Positions 60 to 52,613 of a DNA stretch of 64,000 nt are shown piece by piece. The translations under genes and the position numbers were made by a program. Source of the DNA: Taeniopygia guttata (taxonomy: Eukaryota > Chordata > Aves > Passeriformes > Estrildidae). The stretch lies in assembly GCF_048771995.1 (NCBI RefSeq), contig NC_133060.1, forward strand, positions 951,501 through 1,015,500, read 5' to 3'. The first letter of the stretch is position 1; each line of letters begins with the position of its first letter. Under the pieces are notes generated by a model, which ran no database searches, was not told the DNA's origin, and worked only from the letters and a program-made list of their open reading frames with translations.

Positions 60-800
60 CCAAAAAAACCCCAAATCTCACCTGGTCCTGCCGGTCCTGC
101 GGTGTCCCCGCGGTGTCCCGCTGCTGTCCCCGATGTCCCCTGTCCTGTCCCCTGTCCTGTCCCCGCTGTCCCCTCCCGTGTCCCCGGTCCCGTCCCCCGC
201 CGTGTCCCCGCTGTCCCCATGTCCCCAAAACCCCCAAAAAATCCCAAAAAAACCCCAAAAATCCCCAAACCTCACCTGGTCCTGCCGGTCCTGCGGCGTC
301 CCCGCGGTGTCCCGGTGCCGTCCCCTGTCCTGTCCCCCGGTGTCCCCATGTCCCCAAAACCCCAAATCTCCCCCAGAAACCCCCAAAAATCCCCAAAAAC
401 CCCCAAAATCCCCAAATCTCACCTGGTCCTGCCGGTCCTGCGGTGTCCCGGTGCTGTCCCCGGTGCTGTCCCCGATGTCCCCGCTGTCCCCTCCCGTGTC
501 CCCTGTCCTGTCCCCGATGTCCCCATGTCCCCAAAACCCCAAATCTCCCCAAAAATCCCCAAATCTCACCTGGTCCTGCCGGTCCTGCGGCGTCCCCGCG
601 GTGTCCCGGTGCTGTCCCCGGTGCTGTCCCCGGTGTCCCCTGTCCTGTCCCCGCTGTCCCCTCCCGTGTCCCCTGTCCTGTCCCCCGGTGTCCCCAAAAC
701 CCCAAATCTCCCCCAGAAACCCCCAAAAAATCCCAAAAAAACTCCAAAAATCCCCAAATCTCACCTGGTCCTGCCGGTCCTGCGGCGTCCCCGCGGTGTC
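60..800 (-). repeat. Tandem array of the RNF39-like exon 3' edge plus its donor
   Basis: Five copies of a 147-195 bp unit are present. Each contains the exon edge (reverse strand GGACCGGCAGGACCAG) joined to a GTGAGA donor and a C/A-rich intron piece. The GT dinucleotides fall at 763-764, 568-569, 421-422, 274-275 and 80-81, giving spacings of 195, 147, 147 and 194. The exon-side parts carry GTCCCCG repeats that stay open in several frames, which explains the long proline-rich translations here. Confidence 0.85.
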
Positions 801-1171
801 CCGGCGCTGTCGCCGCTGCTGTCCCCTGTCCTGTCCCCGCTGTCCCCTCCCGTGTCCCCGCTGTCCCCCGCCAGCCGCCGCGCGATCCGCGCCTCCACCG
901 CCAGCGCCACCGCGGTGCGGACGCGGCCCGGGGCGCAGGGACGGCGACACTGGGGACAGCGGGGCCAGCCCGGGGGGGACGCTGGGGACACCGGGGACAG
1001 CCCGGGGGACATTGGGGACATTGGGGACAGCGGGGGCAGCAGGCAGCGGCGGCAGCAGCGGTGCTCGCACGGCAGCAGCACCGGGTCCCGCAGCGCGGCC
1101 CCGCAGCGCGGACACGACGTGGCGGCGGCCAAAGCGGCCAAAGGACCGCGGGACGCGGCGGGAGGCGACAT
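765..1171 (-). CDS. RNF39: RNF39-like RING-finger protein, first coding exon (partial)
   Basis: The exon reads on the minus strand from ATG 1171. A C3HC4 RING is visible at about residues 20-75: CPRC (20-23), C35, H37, C40, C43 and CPQC (72-75), with a proline-rich insert of about 28 residues inside it. The stretch DPVLLPCEH and the following VALAVEARIARRLA closely resemble human RNF39 (DPVLLACEH, then VRLAVEVRISREL), which lies in the same MHC class I framework. The protein is probably an E3 ubiquitin ligase. I end the exon at the first GT donor (763-764), in phase 2, but identical donors recur at 568, 421, 274 and 80, so the real 3' end is uncertain. The B30.2 part expected of RNF39 is not in the window. 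A TRIM-family first exon is the alternative. No promoter was recognised. Confidence 0.55.
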
Positions 1172-4971: not shown

Positions 4972-7900
4972 TCAGCACTCGTCCTCCCCCAGCAGCGCGA
5001 AGGGGTTGGGGGCGGGGCTGGGAGGGGGCGTGGCCTGCTCGGACTCCTCCCCCTCGTCCTCGGAGCTGGGGGCGGGGCCAGCGGGGGGCGGGGCGCTGGC
5101 CCCGCCCCCTGTCATGGCCGCCAGGGCCGCGGTGTCGGGGTGGAGCTCCCAACGCTCTGCGGGGATTTTGGGTCACAAATCCACCATTTTGGGACTTTTT
5201 GGGTCCCAAATCCCCGATTTTGATTTTTTTTTTTTTTAGGTACTATATACCTCCCAAATTTCTAAATTCTGGATTTTTTAAGGCACCAAATCCCACATTT
5301 TTGACTTTTTTTGGGTGCCTAATCCCCTAAAAATCCCAATTTCGGATGTTAAATCTCCCAGTTTTGGGACTTTTTGGGTCTCAAATCCCTGATTTTGATT
5401 TTTTTTTTCTGGTACTATATACCTTCCAAATTTCTAAATTTCATATTTTGCAAGGTACCAAATCCCAGATTTTTGACTTTTTTTGGGTGCCAAATCCACT
5501 AAAAATCCCAATTTCGGGTCTGAAATCTCCCGAGTTTTTGACTTTGTAGGTCTCAAATCCCCAATTTTTGACTTTTTTGCGTACAAAAAGCGCCCCAAAT
5601 CCCCCAAAACTGCCCCAAAAGCCCCCAAAAACGCCGATTTTGGGGGTTTTTTGGTACCTTTCTCCTGGGAGTAGCCCGGGGGCCGGAAGCAGAGGCGCAG
5701 CCGCCCCTCGGCCGCCAGCCGCAGGAGCCCGTTGGCCGCGCGCGCCACGTCGTTGCGAGCCGCCCGCGCCGTCTTGTAGCCCCTCTTCTCTGCCCAGGCT
5801 GGGGGAAACACCCAAAAATGTCCCAGAAAATCAGCAAAAACACCCCAGAAACTCAGCAAAAACACCCCCAAAAAATCACAGAAAACGCAGCAAAAACACC
5901 CCAAAAAATCAGCAAAAACACCCCCAAAAAATCACAGAATATGCAGCAAAAACACCCCAAAAAATCAGCAAAAACACCCCCAAAAAATCACAGAAAACGC
6001 AGCAAAAACACCCCAAAAAAAATCACAAAAAACGCAGCAAAAACACCCCCAAAAAAATCACCAAAAACGCAGCAAAAACGCCCCAAAAAATCAGCAAAAA
6101 CACCCCCAAAAAATCACAAGAAACGCAGCAAAAACACCCCAAAAAAATCACAAAAAACGAAGCAAAAACGCCCCCAAAAAATCAGCAAAAATGCCCCAAA
6201 AATATCCCAAAAACTCAGTAAAACACCCCAAATACTCAGCAAAAAAACCCCCAAAATAGCAGGAGAAAGATCCCGAAAAACTCAGCCAAAACACCCCAAA
6301 AATGCCCTGAACCCCCCAAAACCCGTAAAATTCCCCCCCAAAATCCCAAATATTCCCAAATAAACCCAGAAAAAAATTCACAAATAATTCCAAATAAATC
6401 CCAAACGTTCCCCATTTTTCCGCTGCTAAGTGCCCAGAAATGCCCCAAAACCCCCAAAATTCCCGAAATTCCAGAAGATTCCGGAACATTCCGGAAGGTT
6501 CCGTCCCACCTTCGCAGAGCTCCCAGGTACATTATGTAAATATATTCAGGAATATTCTGGGACATTCCGGAAGGTTCCGGAAGGTTCCGGAAGGTTCCGT
6601 CCCACCTTCGCAGAGCTCCCAGGTACATTATGTAAATACGTTCAGGAATATTCCGGGACATTCCGGGACATTCTGGAACATTCCGTCCCACCTTCGCAGA
6701 GCTCCCAGGCCGTCCAGCCGCCGTCGCCGGGGGGGCGCAGCTGCAGCAGGGGGGGCAGGGCCAGGCGGGACCCCAAAAACCCCACGGCCGAGTAGGGGTC
6801 CTGCAGCTGCGCGATGGGGTACACGCCTGCCAGGACCTGGGAGAGGAGAAATACCACGGGGTAATGGGGTACAGCCCTGCCAGGACCTGGGACAGAGAAA
6901 TACCACGGGGTAATGGGGTACACCCCTGCCAGGACCTGGGACAGAGAAATACCACGGGGTAATGGGGTACAGCCCTGCCAGGACCTGGGACAGAAAAATA
7001 ATGGGGTACACCCCTGCCAGGACCTGGGACAGGGAAATACCATAGGGTAATGGGGTACACCCCTGCCAGGACCTGTGAACAGAGTGAAAATGGGGTACAC
7101 CCCTGCCAGGACCTGGAACAGAAATATAATGGGGTACACCCCTGCCAGGACCTGCGGAGAAAGAGATAATGGGGTACAGGATTGGGGTACAGCCCTTCCA
7201 GGACCTGTGAAAGGAGAAATACCACGGGGTAATGGGGTATACCCCTGCCAGGACCTGGGACAGACAAATACCACGGGGTAATGGGCATTTCGGGGTCACA
7301 CCTGGGGATTTTGGGGTCACACCTGGGGATTTCGGGGTCACACCTGGGGATTTTGGGGTCACACCTGGGGATTTTGGGGTCACACCTGGGGGTTTCGGGG
7401 TCACACCTGGGGTGTTTTGGGGTCACACCTGGGGGTTTGGGGCTCACCTGCAGCTTGGGCGGGGCGCGCGAGGGGAAGGCGAGGCCGGGGCAGGGTCAGG
7501 GTCACACCTGGGGATTTCGGGCTCACACCTGGGCATTTTGGGGTCACACCTGAGGATTTTGGGGTCCCAGCTGGAGATTTTGGGCTCACACCTGGATTTA
7601 AGACTCACCTGCAGCTCGGGCGGGGCCCGCGAGGGGAACACCAGGCCGGGGCAGTCGCAGAGCCGCACCGCGGCCGTCAGGAAGTGGGTCTGGAAGTAGC
7701 GGGTGCGGCCGGGGGCGCGGGACACGCCCACCGCGCCCCGCCCCAGCAGCGCGTTCAGCACCGACGACTTCCCCGCGTTCGGCAGCCCTGGGCGGGGCCG
7801 GGCGCACCTGAGCGGGACACGCCCACCCAGGCCACACCCACAGAGAGCCACGCCCACCTGGGACACACCCACAGAGAGCCACGCCCACCCAGACCACACC

Positions 7901-10900
7901 CACAGAGCCACGCCCACCCAGACCACACCCAGAGAGCCACGCCCATCTGAACCACGCCCACAGAGAGCCACGCCCACCTGGGACACACCCACAGAGAGCC
8001 ACACCCACATGGGACACACCCACAGAGAGACACGCCCACATGGGACACACCCACAATGATCCACGCCCACTCTGACCACACCCACAGGGAGCCACGCCCA
8101 CATGGGACACACCCACAGAGAGCCACGCCCACCTGGGACACACCCAAAGAGAGCCACGCCCACCATGACCACACCCACAATGAGCCACGCCCAGCTGAAC
8201 CACACCCACAGAGAGCCACGCCCACCTGGGACACACCCACAGAGAGCCACACCCACATAGGACACACCCACAGAGAGCCACGCCCACAGAGAGCCACGCC
8301 CATGTGGGACACACCCACAGAGAGCCACGCCCACATGGGACACACCCACAGAGAGCCACACCCACCCAGACCACACCCACAGAGAGCCACGCCCACCTGG
8401 GACACACCCATAATGAGCCACGCCCACCTGAACCACACCCACAGAGCGCCAAACCCACCTGGGACACACCCACAATGAGCCACACCCACCTGGACCACAC
8501 CCACCTGAGCCGCGCCCACAGGGGAAACGCCCACAATGAGCCACACCCACTTTGACCACACCCAGTGACCACGCCCCCTGGACCACACCCAGTGACCACG
8601 CCCCCGGCCCCGCCCCCCGGCCCCGCCCGCTCACCGACGCAGCCCAGCGTCAGCACGCCGTGCCGGTACCGCTCCCACTGCCGGGGCAGGGCCGCGCCCC
8701 CGGGCCCCGCCCCCTCCTCCTCCTCCTCATCTTCCTCCCCGCACGGCGGCTCCTCCCCCTCCTCATCCTCATCATCGTCATCGTCATCTTCGTCATCGTC
8801 ATCCTCCTCCTCCTCCTCCTCCGGGGGGCGCTGCTCCACCCGCTCCAGCCGCGCCCGCCAGCTGCTGAGATCCACTGGGAACAGGGGGTGGCACTGGGGG
8901 CACTGGGGGCACTGGGAATGGGGACTGGGGATACTGGGGGGACTGGGGATAGTCACACAGCCCTTCCAGGACCCTCAAACCCCCCCAGGACCCCCAAACC
9001 CCCCCAGGACCCCCAAACCCCCCCCCAGGACCCCTCTCCATAAACCTGCCCCCCAAACCCCCCCCCAGGACCCCAAAACCCCCCCAGGACCCCCAAAACC
9101 CCCCCAGGACCCCCAAAACCACCCCCAGGACCCCTCCCCACGGACCTGCCCCCCAAACCCCCCCCAGGACCCCCAAAACCCCCCCCAGGACCCCTCCCTA
9201 TGGACCTGACCCCCCCAAAACCCCCCCCAGGACTCCCAAAACCCACACAGGACCCCCAATACCCCCCCCTAGGACCCCCAAAACCCCCCCCAGGACCCCT
9301 CCCCACGGACCTGCCCCCCAAAACCCCCCCAGGACCCCAAAACCCCCCCCCCGGACCCCCAAAACCCCCCCCCCGGACCCCCAAACCCCCCCCAGGACCC
9401 CCAAAACCCCCCCCCCGGACCCCCAAACCCCCCCCAGGACCCCCAACCCGCCCCCAGGACCCCTCCCCACAGACCTGCCCCCCCCACGATCTCCTCGCAG
9501 GCCTCCAGCAGCAGTCGGGGTCCCACGGCGCGGCTCCAGCGACCCCCCCTCTTCTTCTGCCTCTTCTGCAGCCCTGGGGACCCCAAAAATGGCCAAAATC
9601 ACCCCAAAAACAGCCCTGGAGACCCCAAAACCAGTCAGGGCGACCTCAAATCCCCTCAGTGTTACCCAAAACCACCTGGATCCCCCCAGTTCCACCTCAA
9701 ACCCAACTAAAACTCCCCAATTCCACCCTAAACCCCCCCAAACCCACTCAATTCCACCCCAAACCCCTTAAAGTCCCTGAAGTCCCCCCAATTCCACCCC
9801 AAAATCCCCCCAAACCCCCCAGTGGGTACCGGGGCCGGGAGCCGGGGGCAGCCATGCCGGGCCTGCAGGAGGTGGGACACAAAAACCCCAAAATCCCCAT
9901 TTTCAGCCCCAATCCCGTACCGGGGCCGGGCCGGGCACAGCCGTGCCGGGCCTGCAGGAGGTGTGACCCAAAAACCCCAAAATCCCCATTTTCAGCCCCA
10001 ATCCCGTACCAGGTCCGGGCTGGGCGCAGCCGTGCCAGGCCTGCAGGAGGTGTGACCCAAAAACCCCCAAAATCCCCATTTTCAGCCCCAATCCCATACT
10101 GGGGCTGGGGGCTGGGCACAGCCGTGCCAGGCCCGCAGGAGGTGGGACACAAAAACCCCAAAATCCCCATTTTCAGCCCAAATCCCGTACCAGGGCTGGG
10201 CACAGCCATGCCAGGCCTGCAGGAGGTGTGACCCAAAAACCCCAAAATCCCCATTTTCAGCCCCAATCCCGTACCGGGGCCGGGGGCTGGGCCCGGGGCG
10301 GTGCAGAACGGGACCACCCGGGCCGGGCCGTGCCGGGCCCGCAGCAGGTGGGACCCAAAAACCCCAAAATCCCCATTTTCAGCCCCAATCCCGTACCGGT
10401 ACCGGGGCCGGGGGCCGGGCCGGGCGCGGTGCAGAACGGGACCACCCGGGCCGGGCCGTGCCGGGCCCGCAGCAGGTGGCCCCCAAAACCCCCAAAATCC
10501 CCCGTTTTCACCCCAAATGCCGTACCGGGGCCGGGGGCCGGGCCAGGCGCGGTGCAGAACGGGACCACCCGGGCCGGGCCGTGCCGGGCCCGCAGCAGGT
10601 GGGACACAAAAACCCCAAAATCCCCATTTTCAGCCCCAATCCCGTACCGGGGCTGGGCCGTGCCGTGCCGGGCGCACAGAAGATGTGACCCAAAAACCCC
10701 AAAATCCCCATTTTCAGCCCCAATGCCGTACCGGGGCCGGGGGCCGGGCCCACAGGAGGTGTGACCCAAACCCCCAAAATCCCCCATTTTCACCCCAAAT
10801 CCCTTACCGGGGCCAGGGGCCGGGCCGGGCGCGGTGCAGAACGGGACCACCCGGGCCGGGCCGTGCCGGGCCCGCAGCAGGTGGCTCCAGGCCGTGGCCA

Positions 10901-36100: not shown

Positions 36101-39100
36101 TCAGGGCAGGGGGGGCCCGTTGACGCCGGGGTGGTAGAAGGCACAGTTGTTCTCGTACCTGCAGCTGCCCTTGAGCATGAAGTGGCGGCACACGGCGCGG
36201 CTCGACATGTCTGGGGGAGACAAAAGGGGGGGGGCGCGTCAGGCGCCGGCCCCCGGCCCCAAAACGGCCCAAAACGGCCCCAAAAACGGCCCCAAAACCG
36301 GCCCGGAGCCGCCCCGGCACCGGCGGCTCCGGGGGGGGAGGAGGAGGGAGGGGAGGAAAGGGTTAAAAAGGTTTGGGGTAAAGAGTGACCCCGGCCGGCC
36401 TTGAAATCCTCGAAATCGTATGAAATGGCCCCAAAATCATCTGAAACGGCCCCAAAATGGCTCAAAAATGTCCCCAAAATGGCCAAAAGGGCCCCAAAAT
36501 GGCTCCGGAATGGGCTCGGGACGGCCTCAAAATGGCGGCGGGGTGGGGACGCGATTTTGGGGGGTTTTGGGAGGATTTTGGGAGGTTTCAGGGGAAGTTT
36601 GGGGGTTTAAAGGGAAGGGGGTGAACCCCTGACCCCAAAATGATCCCAAACCACCCCAAAAAAGGCCCAAAATGGCCCCAAAATGATCCAAAATGGCTCC
36701 AGGACGGCCTCAAAATGGCGGCGGGTCTGTGAGGGAGAGGAGGATTGGGACACAAATTTTGGGGGTTTTAAAGAAGATTTTGGGGTTTGAATAGGAGGGG
36801 AATAAACCCCAGACCCCAGAATGGCCCCAAAATTCACCAGAAATGGCCCCAAAACAGGCCTCAAGATGGCGGCTCCCTGAGGAGGATGGGGGACACGATT
36901 TTGGGGGGTTTTGGGGAGTTTTAAGGGGATTTTGGGGATTTAAGGAGGATCTTGGAGTGTAAAGGTGAAGGGGATGAACCCCTGGCCCCAAAAAAGCCCC
37001 AAAATTGCCAAAAAATGACCCAAAAGTGGTGCCAGGGCAGGCCCAGCATGGCAGCTGTGGGAAGGAGGAAAGGAAGGGGTTAAAAAGGCCTTTAAAAGAG
37101 AATTTTGGGGGTTTTAAAGAGAATTTTGTGGGGTTTCAGGAGGATTTGGTGGGCTTAAAGAGAAGGGGGTGAACCCGTGACCCAAAAAAAACAAAAAACG
37201 GCCCCAAAATGGACCCAGAGCAGCCTCAAAGCAGCAGCTCTGGGGAAGAGGATGGAAACAGAATTTGGGGGTTTTAAAGGAGGATTTTGGGGTTTTTAAG
37301 GAGGATTTTCAGTTTTCAAGGAAGATTTTAGGGTTTGAAGGAGAACTTTGAAGTTCTTAAGGAGGATTTTGGGTTTTTACGGAAGACTTGGGATTTTTTA
37401 GGAGGATTTTGGTGGGGTTAGAGGGTAGGGGGGGTGAATTCCCAGCCCCAAAACGCTCCTGGATCGAGCCCGGAGAAGCCGCGGGAGGAAAAAAATGGGG
37501 TTAAAAATGAAGATTTTGGGGCTGGGGGGAGCAGGGTCCCTGTCCCCAGAACTAGGAGGGGCTGGGTGGATTTTGGGTGGGGGGGACCCCAAGCCCAGAA
37601 CTACAACTCCCAGAATCCTTTGCACAACAATTGCATGAACTACAGCTCCCAGCAAGCCTCGCTGCCCACAACTGCAGAACTACAGCTCCCAGCACCCCTT
37701 GCGGCCGCATTAGCGCCGGGTTTAGGCCCCACCAGGTGTCAGAGGCCTCCTCAGGCCTGTTTTTGGGCCCCACCGCTAAGGCCTGCAGCACACCTGGGGC
37801 TGAACTACAACTCCCAGCATGCTTTGATCCCCCCCTCCCCCAAATGAGCTGAACTACAGTTCCCAGAAACCCACACAGCAGAGTCAAACCCCCACCAGGC
37901 CTCAGCGGCTCCAGTGAGGAGCTGCTCCTGACTCCCATCACCCCCAAAGGACCCAAACTACAACTCCCAGCATCCCCTTTGGCCGCAAGTCCAAAACTAC
38001 AACTCCCAGCGGCCTTTGCAGCCGTTTTGCCACACCCCTGTCCCTTGCCAGCATGTCTCGCGGCCGCTTTGCAGGCGCCAAACTACAACTCCCAGCATGC
38101 CCTGCTCAGCACCGACCACCAAACTACAGCTCCCAGCATGCCCCGCGGCCCCTCCCACCACAGCCGCCATGAGGGCCGGGGGTCCCTCCCCATTTTGGGG
38201 GGTCCCTCCCCATTTTAAGGGGTCTTTCAGCCATTTTGGGGCAGGGGTCCCCTCCCAGTCTTAGAGGGTCTTTCAGCCATTTTGGGGAGGGGTCTCTCAC
38301 TTGCCCTGGAGCCATTTTGGGGTGGGGAGGATTTCCCCTATTTCTGGGGGGAACTCCAGAACTCCTCGCTGCCCTTTTTGGGGGGGCGGGGGGTCCCTCA
38401 CCGCCATCACCCCCGTTTTGGGGAGGGGTCCCTCGCTGCCCTGGAGCCATTTTGGGGCGGGGAGGATTTTCCCCATTGCTGAGGGGAACTCCAGAACTCC
38501 CCACTGCCCTTTTTGGGGAGGGGTCCCCCATCGCCATCACCCCCAGTCTGGGGGGGGGGAGGTCTCATTCTGCCCTCAGCCCCATTTTGGGGGGGGTCTC
38601 ATCCCCATTTTTGAGGGGGTCTCAGCCCCATTTTTGGGGGGATCTCATCCCCATTTTTGGGGAGGTCTCAGTCCCATTTTTGGGGGGGGGTCTCAGCCCC
38701 ATTTTAGGGGGGGGTTTCAGCCCAATTTGGGGGGGTCTCAGCCTCATTTGGGGTCCCTCAGCCCCATTTTGGTGGGCCCCTCACCACCATTACCGCCATT
38801 TTGGGGAGGGTCCCTCAGCCCCATTTTGGGAAGGGGGGGGTCCCTCAGCCCCATTTTGCGGTGGGGGTTGGGGTCCCTCAGCCCCATTTTGGGGTGGGGT
38901 TGGGGTCCCTCAGCCCCATTTCGGGGGGGTCCCTCAGCCCCATTTTGGGGAGGGGGGGGTCCCTCAGCCCCATTTTGCGGGGGGGTCCCTCAGCCCCATT
39001 TCGGGGGGTGGGGTTGGGGTCCCTCAGCCCCATTTCGGGGGGGTCCCTCAGCCCCATTTTGGGTGGGGGGGTCCCTCAGCCCCATTTCGGGGGGGTCCCT

Positions 39101-42100
39101 CAGCCCATTTCGGGGGGGTCCCTCAGCCCATTTCGGGGGGGGGTCCCTCAGCCCCATTTCGGGGGGTCCCTCAGCCCCATTTTAAGAAGGGGGGGGGTCC
39201 CTCAGCCCCATTTCGGGGGGGTCCCTCAGCCCCATTTCGGGGGGTCCCTCAGCCCCATTTCGGGGTTCAGAGCCCCATGGGGGGTCTGCGCCAGTCGTGG
39301 CCCCTCCCCCAGGGCCCGGGGGGCTCCATGGGCTGCATGGGGGGGGGCGGGGGGTGGTGCGGGGGTGGGGGAGGGGGCTCGCCGCCGCCGCCCCCCCTCC
39401 AGCGGGGGGGCAGGAAGGGCGGGGGCGGGGGGGGCGGGGAGGGGGCGCCCACGGGCCCCTCCCAGCCGGGGCCGGGCCCCCCCCACAGCCAGGCGCCCCC
39501 CCCCCAATTTACCTCCGCCGTGGCCTCCGCCGTGGCCCCGGGGGGGGGGGTGGTCTCTGCCGTGCTCGCCGTGGGGCGGGGGGGGCCCCCCCCGGGACCC
39601 CCCCCCCTCCGCCGCCGCCGTTGGGGGGGGGTCCCCCGCTGCGCCCCCCGCCCCGGCAGCGGTACGGGGGGGGCGGGGGGGCTCGGCGCCGCCGCGACCC
39701 CCCCGGGGAGGGGGGCGGTGGAACGGGGGAGGGGGCGGCCCCCCCCCGCCCCCCCCTCCCCCGCGCATCCCCCCCCCCGCCCCCGCCGTTGGGGGGGGGG
39801 GCCCCCCCGCAGGCCGCCCCCTCCCCCGCCCCCGTCGGGACCCTCCCCCCAGAAGTCGCCGCGCTGGGGGGGGGGCGGGCCCATCATCCGCGGCCCCCCC
39901 GGCAGCCCCGGGGGCAGGCCCGGCCCGGCCCCGGCCCCGCCGCCGCCGCCGTGAGGGCCTGAGGAGAGAGGAGAGGAGAGGAGAGAGCGGGGTTAGAACG
40001 TGTGGGGGGTTTGGGAGTGTTTCTGAGGGGTTTGGGGAGTTTCGGGGGGTTTGGGGAGTTTGAGACTGTTTCTGAGGGGTTTGGGGAGTTTCGGGGGTTT
40101 GGAGTGTTTCTCAGGGGTTTCAGGGGTTTGGGCATTTTTTTGTGGGACTTTTTTGGAATTTTTTTTTTTTTTTTTTATGCGGGATTTTTTGGGCAGTTGT
40201 GTGGGATTTTTTTTGTATTTCATGGGGATGTTTTTTAATTCTTGGGATTTTTTGTGGTGGTGTGCAAGTTTTGGGTTTTTTGGGGATTTTTTTGGGATTT
40301 TTTTTTTTTTTGCGGGATTTTTTTGGAATTTTTTTCATTTTTGCAGAATTTTTTTTTGATTTTTTAGGGTAGTTCTGGGGGGTTTTTTGTATTTCATGGG
40401 GATGTTTTTTAATTCTTGGGATTTTTTTGTGGTTTTGTGCAAGTTTTGGGTTTTTTTTGGGGATTTTTTTGGGATTTTCGTGGTGGGTTTTTTTTATGAT
40501 TTTTTGGGGAATTTTTTGGGGATTTTTGTGGTGGGTTTTTTTAATGATTTTTTTGGGGATCTTTATTTTAATTTTGGGGATTTTTTTGTGGTTTTGTGCA
40601 AGTTTTGGGGTTTTTTTGGGTATTTTTTTTGGATTTTCGGGGTTGGGTTTTTGTATGATTTTTTGGGGATTTTTTTTTAATTTTTGGGATTTTGGGGGAT
40701 TTTTTAGAGTTTTTTTTTGGATTTTTTTAAATTTTGATGTGTTTTTTGGGATTTTTTTTTTTCGTTTTTTAATTTTAATTTTTGGGGGAGTTTTGGTGGG
40801 TTTTTTGCGATTTTTAAATTTTTATTATATTTTCGGAACCTTTTGGGGATTTTTTTGTATTTTTGGGTTTTTTTTTTTTTTTTTGTATTTTCTGGGTTTT
40901 TGTGGGGGATTTGGGGTTTTTTTTGGGATTTGGTAATTTGGGGAGGGGGCGCTTACCCGGCATGGGCCCCCCCGGGGGGAAGTGCTGCATCTTGGGCGGG
41001 GGGAAGCCGTTCATGGGGCCGGGGCCCAGCAGCCCGTGGGGAACTGCAGAAATCGGGGAAAAAACAAAAAAACGGGGTCAGGGGGACCCCAAAACACCCC
41101 CCAAGGAGGGGTGAGGACACCTTAAGTCACCCCAATTTAGAGACCCCCCAAATTTACCCAAAATTAAGGGGGTTAACCTCAATTAGAGACCCCCAAATTT
41201 ACCCCAAATTAAGGGGCTCTTTCCCCTTTAAGGGACGCCCAGGTGACCCCAGTTTAAGGGACACCTGCCCCAGGTCACCCCAATTTTAGGGGGTGTCCCC
41301 AGTTGCCCAGAGCACCCCAAAATCCCTCTCAGGGACACTGGACGTTGTCCCCAAGGTGTCCCCAAGCCCAGAGAACCCCAAAATCCCTGTCAGAACCCCA
41401 GGACGGTGTCCCCAGCTGTCCCCAAGGTGTCCCCAAGGTGTCCCTGGCTGTCCCCAAGATGTTCCCAAGATGTCCCTGGGTGTCCCCAAGGTGTCCCAGG
41501 CTGTCCCCAGGCTGTCCCCAAGCCCAGAGCTCTCTGCTATCCCTGTCAGGACCCCAGGACAGTGTCCCCAGCTGTCCCCAAGATGTCCCTGGGTGTCCCC
41601 AAGGTGTCCCCAAGCTGTCCCCAGGCTGTCCCCAGGCCCAGAGCTCTCTGCTATCCCTGTCAGGACCCCAGGACAGTGTCCCCAGGCTGTCCCCAAGTGT
41701 CCCCAGGCAGTCCCTGATGTCCCCAAGGTGTCCCCAAGCTGTCCCCAAGGTGTCCCCAAGTGTCCCCAGGCTGCCCCCAGGCCCAGAGCTCTCTGCTATC
41801 CCTGTCAGGACCCCGGGACGGTGTCCCCAGCTGTCCCCAAGGTGTCCCCAAGTGTCCCCAGGCTGTCCCCAAGTGTCCCCAGGCAGTCCCTGGTGTCCCC
41901 AAGGTGTCCCCAGCTGACCCTAAGCTGTCCCCCGGATGTCCCTGGGTGTCCCCAAGGTGTCCCCAGCTGTCCCCAGGCTGTCCCCAAGCCCAGAGCTCTC
42001 CGCTATCCCTGTCAGAACCCCAGGATGGTGTCCCCAAGCTGTCCCCAGGCTGTCCCCAAGGTGTCCCCAAGTGTCCCCAGGCTGTCCCTGGGTGTCCCCA

Positions 42101-45100
42101 AGGTGCCCCCAGCTGTCCCCAAGCTGTCCCTGGGTGTCCCCAAGCTGTCCCCAAGGTGTCCCCAGGTGTCCCCAAGCTGCCCCCAGCTGTCCCTGGGTGT
42201 CCCCAAGTGTCCCCAAGTGTCCCCAAGGTGTCCCCAGGCTGTCCCCCAGCCCAGAGCTCTCCGCTATCCCTGTCAGGACCCCGGGACAGTGTCCCCAAGG
42301 TGTCCCCAAGTGTCCCCAAGGCAGTCCCTGGGTGTCCCCAAGCTGTCCCCCTGCTGTCCCTGGGTGTCCCCAAGTGTCCCAAGCTGTCCCCAAGCTGTCC
42401 CAGGTGTCCCTCACCTCCCCCGGGCCCCCCCGGCGGCTGGCTGCCCAGGTTGCCCAGCAGGTGTTTGATCTTGTCCGAGTAGTCCGGCTGCTTCAGCAGC
42501 TCCTCGGCCTTGTGGCTGCTGGGGCCGCCCTGCGGGGAGAGAAACGGGGAGAAAATGAGAAAAAAGGGGGAAAACGGGAGAAAAAATGAGAAAAAAGGGT
42601 GAAAACAGCGGGAAACGGGAGAAAAAATGAGAAAAAAGGGGGAAAATGGGAGAAAAAATGAGAAAAAAGGGGGGAAACGGTGGGAAACAGGAGAAAAAAT
42701 GAGAAAAAAACGTTAAAAATGTGGGGAAATTGGGAGAAAATTAGAAAAAAGGGTAAAAATGTGGGGAAATGGGGAGAAAATTAGAAAAAAGGGTAAAAAC
42801 AGGAAAAGGGGAGAAACGGGAAGGAAATGAGAAAAAAGGAGGAAAAAGCATAAAGATGGGGGAAAGTGGGAGAAAAAATGAGAAAAAAGGTCAAAACGGG
42901 GGGAAATTGGAGAAAAAATGTAAAAAAGGGTAAAATGGGGGAATTGGGGAATAATGGGGAAAGAATGGGAGAAAATGAGAACAAAATGAGAAAAAAGGGA
43001 AAAAATAGGGGAAAAACGGGGAAATGGGGGAGAAATGGGAGAAAATGAGAACAGAGAAAAAATGGGGGAAAATGGGGGAGCAATGAGAAAAACTGAGTAA
43101 AAAGGGAGAAAACGGGGGGGAATGGGGAACAAAGGGGAAAAAGGGGCAAAAATGGGAAGGAAACCAGAAAAAAAGGGCTAAAACCAAGCAGAAACTTGGT
43201 TTTAGGAGAAAAACGATAAAAAAAAAAAGAGAAAAAATGGGAAAAAAGGGGAACATATGGGGAAATAGGGGGAAAATGGGAAAACAGCAAGAAAAAAGGG
43301 CTAAAATGGGGAAAACGAGGAAAAATGAGAAAAAAGGGCAAAACCCAGGCCAAAACAGGAAAAACAGGGAAAAAAACAAGAATAAAAGAGCAAAAAAACA
43401 ATAAAAAATATGAGAAAAAAAATGGAAATACTGGAATAAAGGCAACAACTAGGGAAAAAAGGACAAAGGGATTAAAGGGGAAAAAAAAGAAGGAAAAAAG
43501 ATGAGGAAAAGACAAAAAAAGTGGGGAAAAAAGGGGGAATTAGGGAAAGAACACAGTGGGGAAAGGTGAAAACGGGGGTTCCACCCTTTTATTCCCCCCC
43601 AGTGTGTGACCCCACAGATTTTGGGGGGGTTGCAAACTGGGATTTCCCAATTTTGGGGGTGATCCCCAATTTATGACCTTTCCCACGCCCCGCTAGATTT
43701 TGAAGCACCCCAAATTTGGGGTTCCAAGAATGGGGGGGTGAGCCCCAATTTATAACCCCAAATCCCGATTTTGGGATTCCCACGATGGGGGTGACCCCCC
43801 ACCCTCCCCAAATTTCGGGGCAGCCCGTTTTTTGGGGGGTTACCATGATGGAGCTGAGGATCTCCTGCATGTTGATGGGGGCGTTTTGGGGGGGTCCTGG
43901 GGGGCCCTTGCCCGCCCCGACGCTGCCCATGAGGTTGGCAAGGACCGGGGGCAGCTTGGCCCCCGCGCCCGGCTCCGGGGAGGCGGCGGAGTTCCCGGGA
44001 TCCAGCCCCTCGGGATAGGCCCCGTCCTCGCCGGAGCAGTCCTGGGGGGGCACAAACGGGGGGTCAGGAACGGCATTTCGGGGATTTTTAACTTTTTTAA
44101 ACTTTTTTTGGTTTATTTTTTTTTCCCAGAGCTTACCTCATCCAAGGGGATGAGTTTGGGTGGGAGCGGCTCGTAGGATTCCGGGTCGGGCTCGTGGGGG
44201 CTGTCGGGAATGCTGAGGGGTGAAAAAAGCTCAGTGGGTTTTTCTGGGATCACAAAGGATTTTTTTCCCATTTTCCCCCCTATTTTTGCTCTTTTTTTCT
44301 CATTTTTTCCCCATTTCCCTCCAGTTTTGCTGGGGTTTTGCCCTTTTTTCTTGTTTTTTCCCCACTTCCCTCCCTTTCCCCCTCATTTCTGCCCTTTTTT
44401 TCTCATTTTTCTCCATTTTCCCCTGGGTTTTACCCCTTTTCTCTCATTTTTTCCCATTTTCCACCCATTTTTTCTCATTTTTTCTCACTGGGGGCCCAAA
44501 GGCTTCATAGCCCACATTTCCAGGTTTACGTTTTCCAGTTCTGCATGTGCCAGAAATACTGAATTTTCCACAAGCTTGGGCGTCCTTCAGAATGGTCCCA
44601 AAATGTACCCAAAACGTTCCCCAAAATGGCACAAAGTGATCCCAAAATGGTCTCCAAAAAGAGGCTCAAAGTGACATAGTAAGCACCTAAAATGTCCATG
44701 AAATTGGCACCAAAAGCTAAAAAAAGACTCAGAGCCTCCTGAAAAAGAGGCTCAAATCATCCCCAAAATTGTGCCCAAAGCATCCCAAAATTGGCCCCAA
44801 AAAGTGCTCCTAAAACTGCACCCAAAATATCCCCAAAAAGGGATTTAAAGTGTTCCTAAAATGACCTCCAAAAAGGCCTGCAATGTACTCCCAAACTGTC
44901 TCAGAAAGAGCCTCTAAGTGTTCCCAAAAAGGTCAATAACCTGTCCCCAAAAGTGCCTCCAAAATGTCTCCTAAAGCATCCTCAGGACGGCCTCAAAAGT
45001 CCTCACAAAATGGCCCCCAAGTCCCTCACACAATGGTGTCCAAAGCCCTTACAAAATGGATCCCAAAACCATCACAAAAATGGCACCCAAAGTGCCTCCA

Positions 45101-48100
45101 AAGCCCTCACAAAATGTTGTCCAAAGTGTCCCCAGAACAGCCTCCAAAGCCGTCACAAAATCGACCCCAAACCCCTCACAAAATGACCCTTGAAGTCTCC
45201 AAAATATGGACTCCTAAGTCACTACAAAATGACCCCCAAAGCCCTCACAAAATGGATCCCAGAACCTTCACAAAATGGCACCCAAAGTGTCCCCAGAACA
45301 GCCCCCAAAGCCCTCACAAAACAGCACCAAAGCCCTCACAAAATCACCCCTGAAGTCCCCACAAAATGGCGCCCAAAGTCCTCACAAAATAACCCCTGAA
45401 GTCCCCACAAAATGGCGCCCAAAGCCCTCACAAAATAACCCCTGAAGTCCCCACAAAATGGCGCCCAAAGCCCTCACAAAATAACCCCTGAAGTCCCCAC
45501 AAAATGGCGCCCAAAGCCCTCACAAAATAACCCCTGAAGTGCCCACAAAATGGCGCCCAAAGCCCTCACAAAATCACCCCTGAAGTGCCCACAAAATGGC
45601 GCCCAAAGCCCTCACAAAATAACCCCTGAAGTGCCCACAAAATGGCGCCCAAAGCCCTCACAAAATAACCCCTGAAGTCCCCACAAAATGGCGCCCAAAG
45701 CCCTCACAAAATCACCCCTGAAGTCCCCACAAAATGGCGCCCAAAGCCCTCACAAAAACGGCCCCCAAATCACCTTCACCACCCCGACATTTGGGCTCAG
45801 AACACCACAAATCCCCCATTCCCCATCGCCAAAAGGGGATCCGGGACACGCCACCTCCCAGAACCCCAAATCCCCCACAAACACCCCCAGAAACGCCCCC
45901 CTCACCTCTCCTTGGAGAGGAAGATCTCCTGCAGGATGCCCTTGACGCGCTCGGCCTGCGTGAAGCGCTCGCGGCTGCCGCTGCCGGGGATGACGAGCGG
46001 CGCCGGCAGCTCCAGGGCCTTGGGGTAGATCCAGGGCACCTTCTCCTCCATGGAGTCGTGGCTGAGGCGCCGCGCCGTCTCGAAGGCGTGCCGGTCCTTC
46101 AGCATCTCCCGCTTGGCCGCTTCGCCAAAGTCCTTGATCTTGTTCACGTTCACTGTGCGGGGAGAGGAAGTTTAGGATCAGTTTGGGAAGAAAGCGTGGG
46201 GATTGTCTTGTTCTGGATTGGCCGGGTTGGAAATGTTTAAAAATGGCAGCCAAAGGGGTTTCAAAATGGCAGCCAAAGGGGTTTCAAAATGGCAGCCAAA
46301 GTGTTCAAAAAAAGGGACTTGAAGTGCTCAGAAAATAGGGCCCAAAGTGTCCACAAAATGGAGCCCAAAGTGTCCACAAAATGGCACCAAACTGTCCCAC
46401 AAAAACAGACAGAAATTGCTCCCATAAAGGGACCCAAAGCTTCCTGAAATGGCACCCAAAGTATCCATAAAATGTTCTCTAAAATGTTTTTAAAAGGGAA
46501 CCCAAATTGTCCCTAAAATGATTCCAAAATGGCATCAAATATTCCCACAAAATGTCCCTGTAAAATATCTCAAAATGGCGTCCACAGGGTCCCACAAAAA
46601 GGGGCCCAAAGCCTCCCACAAAATGGCCCCGAAAGGATCCCAGAGCGGCCCCAGAGCTCCCTGGAAGGGTGCCCGGGGTTCTCCAGGGCGTTTTGGGGTG
46701 AATCCCGGCCGTTTTGGGCTCACCCCGCTCGGTCTCGTCCAGCTCAAAGTAGAAATACTCGCGCAGCCGCCCCTCCTCGGGCCACGACACCGATTTCTTC
46801 TTGCGGGTCCTGCGCGGGGCCGGGCCGCCCTCGGAGGGGACATCGGTGGCCTTGGGGTCACCCCCCGCTTCTGACGAGCCTGAGGGGATGGCAGGAGGGA
46901 TCAGCAAAGGGGAAGCCCAAAAATTAGGAGTTTGAGCCTAAAATGGCACTCGGGGAGGGGCAAAGTGACCCCAAAATGGGTCCTGGGGTCGTTGGCAGGG
47001 AGGGATGCAAAATGGCACCCGATGGTCCTGAAAGAGGAACTAAGAGTGCTCCTAAAATGGCCCCAAACTCCCCTAAACTTACCCTAAACAGTGCCAATCC
47101 CACCCAAACCGTCCCCAAACCCAAAGCATCCCCAAACACACCCTAAACTCTCCCCAAACTGATCCTAAACAGCCCAAATCCTACCCAAACTGTCCCCAAA
47201 CCCACACAAACATCTCCAACTGTCCCCAAACCCACCCTAAACTCTCCCAAATCCCCCCAAACTGACCCCAAACAGCACCAATCCTACCCAAACTGTCCCC
47301 AAACCCACACAAACATCTCAAACTGTCCCCAAACCCACCCTAAACAGCACCAATCCTACCCAAACTGTCCTCAAACCCACACAAACCGTCTCAAACTGTC
47401 CCCACACCCACCCTAAACTCTCCCAAATCCCCTCAATCTGACCCTAAACAGCCCCAATTCCACCCAAACTGTCCCCAAACCCACACAAACATCTCAAACT
47501 GTCCCCAAACCCACCCTAAACAGCACCAATCCTACCCAAACTGTCCTCAAACCCACACAAACCGTCTCAAACTGTCCCCACACCCACCCTAAACTCTCCC
47601 AAATCCCCTCAATCTGACCCTAAACAGCCCCAATTCCACCCAAACTGTCCCCAAACCCACACAAACATCTCAAACTGTCCCCACACCCACCCTAAACAGC
47701 ACCAATCCTACCCAAACTGTCCCCAAACCCACACAAACATCTCAAACTGTCCCCACACCCACCCTAAACTCTCCCAAATCCCCTCAATCTGACCCTAAAC
47801 AGGCCCAATCCCACCCAAACTGTCCCCAAACCTGCAGAAACCATCCCAAAACCACCCAAAACGTCCCCAGTCCGTACCGGTGTCCATGGGCTCGGGCACC
47901 TCGATGGCCGGCACCGGCGTCCCCGGCCGGTCCGTGTCCATGGGCTCCGCGGCCGCCGGCTCTGGGGACGAGGGTTTGGCCGTGCTGGGCTCCGGCGCTG
48001 GCTTCCCCTCGAAGGGGCTGGGCTGGGGGGACACAAGGTGGGTCAGAACGGGGTGTTTTCACCCCAAAATGACTCCCAAAGCATTCCCCAAATGGTTCAT

Positions 48101-51100
48101 GAGGCGTTCACAAAATGGCGTCTGTGGCGCTCTCAAAATGGAAGCCAAATTGGCCACAAAATGGCTGCCAAAGTGTCCCCAAAATGGTCCTCAAGTTGTT
48201 CCCAAAATGGCCCCCAAATTGGCATCCTAAAAAGCCACGCAACATCCCCAAAAAAGGATTTAAAACTGCAACAAAATGGCCTCAAAAATGGTCTCAAAAC
48301 AGTCCACAAATTACCCCAAAAGTGTTCCTAAAAAATTATTCAAAATATTTACAAATTAGCCCCTGAAAGTGTGCCTGAAATAACCCCCAAAGTGTCCCCA
48401 AAAAGGGACTTGAGGTACCCTTAAAATGGCTTTTAAAGTTTTCCTAAAATGTCCCAAAATGACCCCAAAATGCCCCTCACCTTGGCTGCTGTTGGGGACA
48501 GAACTTTCTTCTTCTTTTTGATTTTGATGCCGGGGACGGGCGCCGAGTTCAGGGCATCCAGGAACCCGAGGCCTTCCATGGCTGGGGGAGCAGAGAGAGG
48601 TCACCAAAAAACCCCAAATTCACCCCAAAACAGGTCCCAAACCTGCCTCAAAATGGTGCCCAAATTGCCCCGAAAATGGTGCCCAAATCTCCCCTAAAAA
48701 AGGATCCCAAATGGCACCAAAATGACCCCAAAATGAAACCAGAAATGGCACCAGAATCAACCCCAAAATAGCACCAAAATGACCTCAATATGGCACCAGA
48801 AATGGCACCAGAATCAACCCCCAAATTAGCACAAAAATTACTCCAAAATGGCACCAAAATAACCCCAAAATGACCCCCAAACCCCCCAAACCTCCCAAAC
48901 TCACGCTGCGGGGGGATGATCTTCACTTTGATCTCCTTGGCCGCATTTGGGGCCGTGTTCAGGGGTTTGTATTTCTTCTCTGCCAGAGGAGCCTCCCCGG
49001 GGGCTGTCGGGGCGCTGGGGGGAGGAAAAAGGGTCAGGACCCCCCAAAACCACCCCAAAACCCCTGAGATTTCCCTCAAAATGGCCCCAAACCCGTCCCC
49101 AATGGCCCTGAAAATGTCCCCAAAATAGATCCCTGAGATTGTCCCAAAAACACCCTGAAGGCACCCCTAAAATGACCCCAAAACCACCCCTAAAACTGTA
49201 CCCCCCCAAATGGCCCAGAGACACCCAAAATATCCCCAGCACTACCCCGAGAAAAACCCCAAAACCACCCCAAAAAAACCCCAAAACTACCCCCAAAATA
49301 ATCCTGAAACATCTCCAGAACTGCCTCAAACCAGCCCCAAAAATCTCCAGAAATTCCCCAAAATCAGCCCCAAAAGCAGCTCTGAGACCCCAAAATGGCT
49401 CTGAAACCCTAAAACTGGCCCAAAATCCCCTAAAATGCCCCCAAATCCCACCTCTGTCTCTTCACCGGGACGGGTTTCAGGCTGTATTTGTCGGACGAGG
49501 CCGAGTTCAGTTTCTTCACTGGCACCAGGGACGGCGTCTCCAGCTCCAGCCCTGAGGGGAAAAAAGGCTCAGAAATCCCCAAAACGGCCCCAAAAATCCC
49601 CCAAACAGCTCAAAAACCAGCCCTAAAATGGCCCAAAATCGTTACAACCCCAATAGTGGAGCTTGAGCTCCGAATTCCCCAAAATCAATGCCAAATTCAT
49701 CTCAAATTTCCCTCAGCAAGCTCCAAACACATCCTAAGTTCCCCAGTTTTAGCACAAATTCCTCAAAAGAGCCTAAAAATCCCAAAACCAGCCCCAAATG
49801 TCCCTTAAAACCACTCCTAAATTCCAAACCCACCCCCAAAATCCCTTAAAATGGCCCAAATCAACCCCAAATTCCCAAAACCAGTCTCAATTTCTCTTAA
49901 AACCAGCTCTAAATTCCCAAAAACCACCCCAAACTCCCCTAAAACAGCCCAAACCCACCCCAAATTCCTAAAACCAGCCCAAATTTCCCTTAAAACCACT
50001 AAATTCCCAAAAAATACCCAAACCCGCCCCAAATCCCACCTGTGGAGCGGAACTTGGCGTGGCTGGGGGCCGTGGTCCGCAGGGATTTGGGTTTTTCCCG
50101 TTTTTTTTCGGGAATTTCCTCATTTTTGGCCTCGTTTTTGGTCTCCTGGGGCTTCTCCGGGACTGGGGTTTTGCTTTTGTTTTCCTCTTTCCTCTTCTTC
50201 TTATCCCGTTCTGGGGTGGGAAAAGGGGGTGAGGGGATTTCAGGGGAATTTTGGAAGGGATTCTGGGGAGTTTTTGGGGGAATTTTGGGGGATTTTGGGG
50301 CTCACCTGTGGGTTGAGAGCTGCTCTGGGAGCGGATCACCCCCATCCAGTCGCTGACCAGGATGGAGGCCAGGCGCCGGAGCTCTGAGGGGTTAATTAGG
50401 ATTAATCATTAATTAATCAGGGAATAATCAAGCAGCGGTGGGGAGGGGGACCTAGAGGAGGTTTAGGGGGATTTGGGGGGAGGTCCAAGGGGAGTTTTGG
50501 GGGATTTCAGAGGGGGTTTGGGAGTTTCAGAGGGATCGGTGCTGAGTTTTGGGGGGTTTAAGGGGGGATTTGGGGGTTTCAGAGGGATCAGTGATGATTT
50601 TTGGGGGGCCTGAGGGGGTTTTGGGGGTTCTCAGGGAGATTTTGGGGTTTTTCAGGGAGGTTTTTGGGGATCTCAGGGGGATTTTGGGGTTTTTTGGGGG
50701 TCCCTGCTCACCCTCATCATCGCTGGACTTGCTGAGCTGCTTCACCAGCTTGGCTGTGTTGTTCTGCAAAGGAAATGGGGGCTCAGGGGGGACAAAGGGA
50801 CACCAGAGGTGACAAAAGCCACCTGTGATATCCCCAAGTACCACCTGAGTGTCCCCAAGTGCCACCCCAGTGTCCCCAAAGCCCCCAGAAGGGCCTTAAA
50901 TGACACAAAAATCACTTTGGAGTGGGACAAAAAACCCTCAGCAGCAACAAAAACCATCTGTGGTTTCCCCAAGAGACACCTCAGTGTCCCCAAGTGCCAT
51001 CTGAGGGTCCCTAAATGCCACCCGAGTGTCCCCAAAGCCCCCAGGAGGGCCTTAAATGACACAAAAATCACTTTAAATGAGACAAAAGCCACTCTGGGAG

Positions 51101-52613
51101 TGACAAAAGCCACCCAAGTGTCCCCAAAAACCAGCTGTGATGTCCCCAGGTGCCACCCGAGGGGACCAGACCTGCTTGAGGTGGTCGACGGTGAGCGGGA
51201 GGTGCTGCAGGGTGAGCAGCAGCTGCTGCAGGAAGGGGACGTTGTTGGCGGCCTTGGAGCCCGTCAGCCACGTGTTGAGCAGCTTGTAGCCCCCGATCCG
51301 GATGAACCTGAGGGGAAAAGTGGGAATTGTGCACAGATCCAGACAGGAAAACATTAATTTTGTCAAAATCCACCTGAAATAAAAAAAAACCCCGTCGAAA
51401 TATGCCTAAATCCAACTGAAATCCAAAAAAAACCCCGTCGAAATCTGCCTAAATAAAAAAAAAATCCTGTCAAAGTCCACCTGAAATTCAATTTTCCATG
51501 GGGTTACTGAGCCAGGATGAACCTGAGGGGAAAAAGTGGGAATTGTGTCCAGATCCAAACAGGAAAACACTAATTCTGTCACAATTCACCTGAAATCCAA
51601 AAAAACCCAGTCGAAATCTGCCTAAATAAAAAAAAATCCTGTCAAAATCCACCTGAAATTCAATTTTCTATGTGGTTTCTAAGGTAGGATGAACCTGAGG
51701 GAAAAAAGTGGGAATTGTGTCCAGATCCAGCTGGGAAAACCTTAATTCTGTCAAAATCCACCTGAAATCCAAAAAAAAATCCTGTCAAAATCCACCTAAA
51801 ATTCAATTTTCCATGTGGTTACTGAGCCAGAATGAAACTGAAGGGAAAAAGTTGGAATTCTGGAAGGATCTGTTCAAGAAGACCTCAAAATCCACCCAAA
51901 CCTACCCAAATTTCCCCAAAATTCCCTCAAAAATCCCTTTTTTCCACGTGCTTAGTAGGTCTGAGGATGAAATCTGAGGGAAAAAAAGTTGGAATTCTCT
52001 AAGGATCTGGCCAGGAAAACCTCGAAACCCACCCAAACCCACTCAAATTTCCCCAAAACCCCCTCAAAAATCCCATTTTTCCACGTGTTTACTAGGTCTG
52101 AGGGTGAAAACTGAGGGAAAAAAAGTTGGAATTCTGCCCTGATCTGGCTGGGGAAACCAGGAATCCACCCAAAATCCCCTCAAAAATGCCATTTTTCCCT
52201 GTGTTTACTAGGTCCGAGCATGAAATCTGAGGGAAAAAAGTTGGAATTCTGGCAGGATCTGGCCAGGAAAACCTTGAACCCACCCAAATTTCCCCAAAAT
52301 CCCCAGAAAAATGCCATTTTTCACGTGCTTACTTGGCCAGGATGTCCTGGGCCCGGGTCTGCAGGAGGATGTTCAGGTAAATGCAGCGACTCACCATCTT
52401 CTGGGAGTCCTTCATGAGGCTAATTAACAGCAATTAATAACAATTAGTGGTCACAAATCCCAAAAAAGGGTGCATAGAGCCAAAAACGGAGGATTTTGGG
52501 TCTGACCTGAATATTTTGGAGATGCCATCCATGGTTTTGACCTCCCCATCCCGGCCCAGGAAACAATCGAGGCCCTTGAGGAGCTCCTTGGGGTCGATGG
52601 GGCCGGAGCCCAT
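36101..52613 (-). CDS. PPP1R10: PPP1R10 (PNUTS), nuclear PP1-targeting subunit
   Basis: Nuclear scaffold that holds PP1 with WDR82/TOX4 and acts in transcription termination. The coding exons are 52507-52613, 52333-52419, 51172-51307, 50712-50763, 50306-50383, 50040-50210, 49452-49551, 48905-49014, 48481-48581, 47878-48022, 46724-46879, 45906-46152, 44137-44212, 43844-44041, 42415-42529, 40957-41043, 39513-39958 and 36101-36210. They total about 840 aa (human 940). [16 protein letters not shown] is identical to human. A TFIIS-N-like region covers about 70-150. The PP1 RVxF-type motif is KSVSW (391-395). A G/R/P-rich region precedes a C-terminal CCCH finger ([20 protein letters not shown]). 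Most of the human HRPHEGPGG repeats are missing. The exon 39513-39958 changes frame near a nine-C run (39769-39778), one base short, most simply a homopolymer sequencing error. The donor at 39511-39512 (GTAAAT) restores [13 protein letters not shown] exactly. Confidence 0.94.
36400..37440 (-). repeat. 140-190 bp tandem units, PPP1R10 intron 17 (part)
   Basis: About six diverged copies of a unit carry CCCCAAAATGGCC..., CAAAATGGCGGC, GGTTTTAAAGGAGATTTTGG and GGGGGTGAACCCCTGACCCC. No gene is visible. Confidence 0.8.
37600..38141 (+). promoter_or_regulatory. Cluster of nine ACTACA..TCCCAG motifs
   Basis: Nine copies of ACTACARYTCCCAG start at 37600, 37639, 37679, 37804, 37853, 37957, 37996, 38082 and 38123, all on the plus strand. 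Several extend to the full ACTACAACTCCCAGCATGC. This is the SBS-type element known to bind ZNF143 and THAP11/HCFC1, normally found once or twice in promoters. The repeats lie in the last intron of PPP1R10. Confidence 0.85.
38165..39265 (-). repeat. GGTCCCTCAGCCCCATTTCGG repeat, PPP1R10 intron 17 (part)
   Basis: A 22-30 bp unit is repeated about 35 times. It keeps a long open frame on both strands, but there is no recognisable protein and the PPP1R10 frame leaves the exon at 39513. Confidence 0.9.
39960..40950. repeat. T/G-rich tract, PPP1R10 intron 16
   Basis: GGGGATTTTTTTGGGATTTT-type sequence contains two related copies of about 190-200 bp (TTTCATGGGGATGTTTTTTAATTCTTGG at 40218 and 40394). 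Confidence 0.8.
41290..42410 (-). repeat. CCCAAGGTGTCCCC minisatellite with higher-order unit, PPP1R10 intron 15
   Basis: 12-bp GTCCCCAAGGTG units are interrupted about seven times by a block beginning CAGAGCTCTCTGCTATCCCT and ending GGACAGTGTCCCC. The higher-order period is about 115-250 bp. Confidence 0.92.
42540..43570 (+). repeat. Purine tract of about 1 kb, PPP1R10 intron 14
   Basis: GGGAGAAAAAATGAGAAAAAAGG repeats make a plus strand that is almost wholly A/G. In the minus-strand transcript it is a 1-kb pyrimidine tract ahead of the exon 42415-42529 acceptor. The homopurine mirror-like structure could form triplex DNA. Confidence 0.85.
44630..45780 (-). repeat. AAATGGCGCCCAAAGCCCTC repeat, PPP1R10 intron 12
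   Basis: About nine close copies of a 52-bp unit (CACAAAATAACCCCTGAAGT plus CCCACAAAATGGCGCCCAAAG) run from 45330 to 45760. More diverged CCCAAAATG-type relatives extend back to 44590. No gene is visible. Confidence 0.92.
46200..46640. repeat. Diverged AAAATGGCACCCAAAGTGTC repeats, PPP1R10 intron 11
   Basis: These are loose 20-30 bp units of the same AAAATGG..CAAAGTG family as in intron 12. I see nothing else. Confidence 0.7.
47060..47870 (-). repeat. CCCAAACTGTCCCCAAACCC array, PPP1R10 intron 10
   Basis: About 178-bp higher-order units are built from short CCCAAACTGTCCCC blocks. Copies beginning near 47400 and 47578 are almost identical. Confidence 0.9.
48040..48480. repeat. Diverged CCCAAAATGGCTCCCAAAG repeats, PPP1R10 intron 9
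   Basis: Short AAAATGGCxxCAAAGTG-type units. The same family, with CAAAATGGCACCAGAAATGG, fills intron 8 (48582-48904). Looser CCCCAAAACC repeats fill introns 7 and 6 (49015-49451, 49552-50039). No genes are visible. Confidence 0.7.
50800..51130. repeat. CCACCTGAGTGTCCCCAAGTG repeat, PPP1R10 intron 3
   Basis: A 17-20 bp unit lies inside two larger copies about 130 bp apart (each with GGAGGGCCTTAAATGACACA-like text at 50891 and 51043). Confidence 0.85.
51300..52330 (-). repeat. Tandem units carrying the PPP1R10 exon 3 acceptor edge
   Basis: About seven units of 110-210 bp fill intron 2. Each contains the exon start seen at the genuine acceptor (plus strand GATGAACCTGAGGGGAAAA at 51301), with copies near 51517, 51688, 51830, 51967, 52101 and 52217. 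They are increasingly diverged with distance from the genuine site. Some also resemble the exon 2 donor text (TTACTxGGCCAGGATG). Confidence 0.85.

What the first reader, a model, noticed from the sequence alone, without database searches (positions are those of the whole stretch)
60..52330. Splice-junction minisatellites: tandem repeats that copy exon edges with their splice sites
At about twelve junctions in four genes (RNF39-like exon 1 donor; GNL1 exon 6, 7, 9 and 10 donors and exon 10 acceptor; ABCF1 exon 11, 14 and 16 donors and exon 13 and 18 acceptors; PPP1R10 exon 3 acceptor) the repeat unit spans the exon-intron boundary. The intron thus carries 1-10 spare copies of a donor or acceptor plus 15-70 bp of coding text. 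So many independent cases in 60 kb suggest a mechanism that starts at GC-rich splice junctions, such as slippage, R-loops or transcription-linked breaks. They may also offer redundant or alternative splice sites. I know of no description of this as a class.
Basis: partly seen in the sequence, partly recalled or inferred. Interest (0 to 1): 0.85.

Follow-up and report, generated by a model that had tools for sequence, protein, structure and literature searches.

The report
Exon-edge tandem repeats in bird introns
In a repeat-choked stretch of a small, probably bird chromosome, local tandem repeats in introns sometimes swallow the neighbouring exon edge and copy its splice site; this is real, was described in chicken in 2026 as "exon stuttering", and here it happens no more often at splice junctions than repeat edges fall elsewhere in introns.

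Summary
Shuffled introns give 0-1 of 96. The class is already in print: Hron et al. 2026 (PMC12954441) describe it on chicken dot chromosomes as "sequence stuttering", with "exon stuttering" for copies that carry an exon edge and its splice site. The proposed start at GC-rich junctions is not supported: 12 spanning arrays observed, 13.0 +/- 3.4 expected of ordinary array edges; repeat density rises from exon into intron without a peak at the junction; GC around the 12 equals that around the other 84, although their exon sides lean richer (p=0.08). Two ABCF paralogues on other chromosomes show none of it. Best reading: chromosome-wide local tandem duplication filtered by selection; edge-spanning duplications are tolerated because one junction stays intact and the spares leave with the intron. 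If used, 41 of 48 spare sites would shift the frame or meet a stop; RNA and length polymorphism were not available.

The parts
765..1171 (-). RNF39-like exon 1 coding part, from a proposed ATG to the donor; RING motif
69..860 (-). array from RNF39-like exon 1 donor: true donor plus 4 spare copies in the window, up to 96 bp of exon copied, running on left of the window
   Evidence: 7 further approximate matches in L009
4972..14102 (-). GNL1 gene, 12 coding exons
6468..6710 (-). GNL1 exon 10 donor array, 2 spare copies
6814..7285 (-). GNL1 exon 10 acceptor array, 9 spare copies, unit about 49 bp
   Evidence: 8 copies in the blastn screen
7440..7655 (-). GNL1 exon 9 donor, one spare copy with 46 bp of exon
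8991..9483 (-). GNL1 exon 7 donor array, 4 spare copies
   Evidence: not found by the blastn screen
9826..10886 (-). GNL1 exon 6 donor array, 8 spare copies at 7 edits or fewer (10 at 9 or fewer), up to 78 bp of exon; true donor GTAAGG, 8 of 10 copies GTACGG
17518..33777 (+). ABCF1 gene, 20 modelled exons (N-terminal exons uncertain)
   Evidence: model; 542-residue gapless match to ABCF1 of PDB 5zxd
20415..20900 (+).
   Evidence: 3 copies in the blastn screen
22370..23181 (+).
24548..24740 (+).
26793..27375 (+).
28225..28887 (+).
36101..52625 (-). PPP1R10 gene, 18 modelled exons
   Evidence: model; first 522 residues match PPP1R10 of PDB 9ci7, 3.3e-79; PF08711 TFIIS-like helical bundle; C-terminal CCCH motif
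51292..51710 (-). PPP1R10 exon 3 acceptor, 2 spare copies at 7 edits or fewer (5 at 9 or fewer)
   Evidence: not found by the blastn screen

Best explanation
This is exon stuttering, the border-spanning form of the 'sequence stuttering' known from chicken dot chromosomes. Local tandem duplication and array turnover fill the non-coding DNA of this chromosome (shown: arrays cover about half or more of each readable piece sampled). They have no demonstrable affinity for splice junctions (shown here: the junction rate equals the array-edge rate). Duplications inside exons are removed by selection; those with one end in an exon and one in the intron survive because the junction next to the exon body still splices and the extra copies leave with the intron (inferred). 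A zone just upstream of acceptors is kept freer of repeats, as expected if branch point and pyrimidine tract are constrained (depletion shown, cause inferred). The molecular step that makes the duplications (replication slippage, G4- or R-loop-linked breaks, meiotic conversion between repeats) is not settled here.
For: Twelve of 96 junctions have a straddling copy on the intron side; intron-interior boundaries have a copy on one given side in 67% and on one side only (an array edge) in 13.6%. Random sets of 96 intron boundaries give 13.0 +/- 3.4 edges, P(>=12)=0.66. At 4, 5, 6 and 7 edits junctions have 8, 10, 12, 12 and array edges predict 13.4, 13.7, 13.1, 11.6, no excess at any. TRF arrays in introns predict 18.1, or 10.6 if the whole 30-mer must fit in the terminal unit. 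Repeat fraction from exon into intron: donors 0.08, 0.09, 0.12, 0.14, 0.18, 0.33, 0.58, 0.63, 0.66, 0.80, 0.79; acceptors 0.03 rising to 0.76; no peak at the border. Exon interiors 12% repeated, intron interiors 81%. At 16-30 bp into the intron donors 0.58, acceptors 0.32 (p=0.004, one of four bins tested, unadjusted); no clear difference in the 61-150 bp bins. All 9 border-anchored blastn cases start at the border, as tandem duplication demands. TRF coverage 0.48-1.00 in 8 of 9 further 10-kb pieces of the same scaffold, the ninth being all N. ABCF paralogues on C11 and C3: 0 repeated 30-mers in or within 60 bp of 20 tblastn segments, some of which overlap each other. The same phenotype is published in chicken.
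Against: Only 96 junctions of four neighbouring genes: the exact 95% interval of 12/96 is 6.6-20.8%, 0.49 to 1.53 times the array-edge rate. The array-edge null is an approximation: arrays that would have run into exons are missing from the data. Splice dinucleotides survive in 46 of 48 spare copies, above GT 0.73 and AG 0.60 at comparable intron array edges; a constrained reference copy may explain this, but I did not prove it. The exon side of the 12 is somewhat richer in GC than that of the other 84 (p=0.07-0.08 at 50 and 100 bp). The donor-acceptor difference in spanning copies themselves (8 of 47, 4 of 49) is not significant (p=0.23). No length polymorphism and no RNA could be examined.
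Confidence: 0.8

Rival explanations
1. A process that starts at GC-rich splice junctions (slippage, R-loops or transcription-linked breaks at the border) produces the arrays, so junctions are hot spots.
For: Twelve cases in about 50 kb look many. Sense-strand G over C in 27 of 40 introns of 150 bp or more (p=0.038) and G4-motif coverage 0.28 sense against 0.125 antisense leave a transcription link for arrays in general possible. Exon sides of the 12 lean GC-richer, 0.723 against 0.665 (p=0.079).
Against: Junction rate equals the array-edge rate; no peak at the border; GC over both sides is the same at the 12 and the other 84; 13 of 40 introns do not have G over C on the sense strand; coding exons (GC 0.66-0.79) carry few repeats.
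Confidence: 0.07
2. The spare donors and acceptors are kept because they serve as redundant or alternative splice sites.
For: GT or AG kept in 46 of 48 copies at 7 edits or fewer, complete in 11 of 12 arrays, against 0.73 (183 GT boundaries) and 0.60 (167 AG boundaries) at control edges. RNF39-like copies are identical to the true junction over 30 bp in two of four cases.
Against: Only 20 of 48 copies lie a multiple of three away and 7 of 48 extend the frame without a stop. Of 67 copies scored (9 edits or fewer, including doubtful ABCF1 e9 background repeats) 49 are weaker than the true site, 8 equal, 10 stronger. The ABCF1 e11 copies have lost GT. True-site constraint alone raises apparent retention: exon half 0.885, rest of intron half 0.829, splice dinucleotide 0.958.
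Confidence: 0.06
3. Assembly artefact: false duplication or misjoined repeats.
For: The scaffold carries N stretches (L013 all N, L015 2500 N), and DNA of this kind is reported hard to sequence and assemble (passages of PMC6792250).
Against: Copies mostly differ from one another by scattered substitutions and indels and by unit length, which false duplication would not give; ABCF1 aligns without a gap over 542 residues; the general structure was verified with raw nanopore reads in chicken PHF8.
Confidence: 0.03

Closest known systems
Sequence stuttering / exon stuttering on chicken dot chromosomes (Hron et al. 2026, Genome Biol Evol 18:evag038, PMC12954441; read: abstract, results section 7, first part of section 8, discussion, screen method; elsewhere passages)
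   Same: Imperfect direct tandem copies of an exon edge with its donor or acceptor in the adjacent intron; coding exon intact; exon part 20-187 bp (median 36) there, 23-96 bp here (longest per junction, 9 border-anchored cases); 1-44 copies there, 1-9 at 7 edits or fewer here; introns full of tandem repeats; related gene elsewhere free of them.
   Different: The paper itself says that local repeat expansions were seen in some other birds, so a second bird is not new in kind. Length variation among individuals, part of the published definition, is untested here. The test against array edges is mine; I did not see it in the sections read.
GC-rich hidden avian genes with tandem-repeat introns and G4 motifs (Beauclair et al. 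2019, PMC6792250; passages read)
   Same: GC-rich coding sequence, introns of tandem repeats, G4-type motifs.
   Different: In the passages seen, no copying of exon edges with splice sites is described.
Intron gain by tandem genomic duplication (PMC4974935; search listing and start of abstract only)
   Same: Tandem duplication that involves coding text and splice sites.
   Different: There a duplication is linked to a new intron; here the copies lie inside existing introns.

Membership tests
sequence/exon stuttering (Hron et al. 2026) | introns repetitive, filled with local imperfect tandem repeats | tested here: met
   intron-interior 30-mers with a local copy 81%; non-redundant TRF arrays assigned to introns add up to 65% of intron bases
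sequence/exon stuttering (Hron et al. 2026) | direct tandem copies of a coding-exon edge with its splice site in the adjacent intron | tested here: met
   12 of 96 junctions; 9 border-anchored by blastn screen; 7 at the published 42.1-bit cut-off
sequence/exon stuttering (Hron et al. 2026) | source lies at the exon border | tested here: met
   distance 0 in 9 of 11 junctions with hits; the 2 others (55 and 108 nt away) are weak, 28-30 bits
sequence/exon stuttering (Hron et al. 2026) | coding regions stay intact | tested here: met
   open joined models for GNL1 and for ABCF1 from exon 4 on; ABCF1 gapless against 5zxd over 542 aa. Exception: the joined PPP1R10 model reads the last exon in the wrong frame after exon 17
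sequence/exon stuttering (Hron et al. 2026) | absent from related genes on other chromosomes | tested here: met
   ABCF paralogues on C11 and C3: 0 repeated 30-mers at 20 tblastn segments; no paralogue of the other three genes was tested
sequence/exon stuttering (Hron et al. 2026) | located on a dot chromosome | tested here: inconclusive
   scaffold C37 (4.9 Mb) is repeat-dense, but not every small scaffold is (C34 0.11, C36 0.04, one 10-kb piece each) and dot identity was not established
sequence/exon stuttering (Hron et al. 2026) | intron length varies among individuals | not testable with these tools
   one assembly only
intron gain by tandem duplication | a new intron arises inside a former exon | not tested
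   intron positions were not compared with other vertebrates

The most novel reading that the evidence does not exclude
The spare splice sites are not all neutral debris: some arrays keep working donors or acceptors under selection, or are re-copied from the true junction, giving genes on such chromosomes a reservoir of redundant sites and, at GNL1 exon 6, GNL1 exon 10 and ABCF1 exon 8, possible in-frame extensions of the protein.
Probability: 0.08. Interest if true: 0.65.

Novelty: new member of a known kind. Interest (0 to 1): 0.38.

Why it matters
It documents, with exact exon models, the GNL1-ABCF1-PPP1R10 block as an instance of a phenomenon reported in 2026 from chicken dot chromosomes (the authors mention local repeat expansions in some other birds too). 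It adds a simple test that I did not see in the sections read: exon-edge copying needs no junction-directed mechanism, because its rate is what array edges alone predict. That moves the open question from splice junctions to why whole chromosomes of this kind are so prone to local tandem duplication.

Tried and rejected
Rejected: junction-directed origin; general use of spare sites; chance; assembly artefact as the main cause.

Led nowhere or stayed weak: retention of splice dinucleotides in copies is suggestive but confounded by constraint on the reference copy and by shared ancestry of copies within an array. Donor matches of ABCF1 e9 at 8-9 edits (12 of its 13) look like background CAGGTG repeats and are not among the 48 copies. 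TRF alone finds only 6 of 96 straddling arrays, so it is less sensitive than the edit-distance test. Of the six literature searches, the one with four terms on splice site, tandem duplication, exon-intron junction and minisatellite found 0 papers, and one on minisatellites and splice donors found 2 that by title are unrelated. Sense-strand G bias is real but not universal.

Not done: a genome-wide screen of this assembly, comparison with other birds, RNA, length polymorphism, conservation of intron positions.
Full report
What the window is. The window lies at G000:C37:951501-1015500 in a 1.14-Gb assembly of 41 contigs. Tandem Repeats Finder covers 56% of the window. Of nine other 10-kb pieces of C37 one is all N and eight have 48-100% coverage; four pieces of C1, C5 and C15 have 0-1%, one piece each of C20, C28, C34 and C36 4-11%, and one each of C33, C35 and C38 56-77%. 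One of the C1 pieces (L018) is nevertheless 99% repeated at the 30-mer level, apparently a longer-unit satellite.

Genes. From six-frame translations I built exon models: an RNF39-like exon 1 (minus strand), GNL1 (12 exons, minus), ABCF1 (20 modelled exons, plus) and PPP1R10 (18 modelled exons, minus). ABCF1 matches the ABCF1 chain of PDB 5zxd over 542 residues without a gap, which checks its junctions from the exon 5 donor on. The first part of PPP1R10 matches 9ci7. GNL1 has MMR_HSR1 and resembles LSG1/GNL GTPases. The RNF39-like exon has a RING match only. Left out before counting: a doubtful early ABCF1 exon near 16.7 kb, the donor of the exon at 18168, and untranslated exons. That leaves 47 donors and 49 acceptors.

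Noticed in passing
window 36101-52625, 4972-14102, 17518-33777 (introns): Many introns are dominated by motifs of extreme strand asymmetry (sense GC skew from -0.79 to +0.76 in the 40 introns of 150 bp or more); G exceeds C on the sense strand in 27 of the 40, and G4-type motifs cover 0.28 of sense and 0.125 of antisense.
   Followed up: partly
window 39513-39958 (-): PPP1R10 exon 17 is a G/C homopolymer-rich stretch after which the joined model reads the last exon in the wrong frame; an indel in the assembly or an unmodelled intron could explain it.
   Followed up: no
window 26999-27375 (+): The three spare ABCF1 e11 donors read GG, GC, GC instead of GT while their flanks are partly kept (6-9 edits in 30).
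   Followed up: partly
L018 (C1:20000001-20010000): 99% of 30-mers have a copy within 800 bp but TRF (periods up to 500) finds nothing: probably a satellite with a unit of 500-800 bp.
   Followed up: no
L014 (C37:200001-210000): One tandem array covers the whole 10-kb piece.
   Followed up: no
L009 (left flank of the window): The RNF39-like exon 1 donor array runs on beyond the window, with 7 more approximate donor matches, two of them 1.3 kb away.
   Followed up: partly
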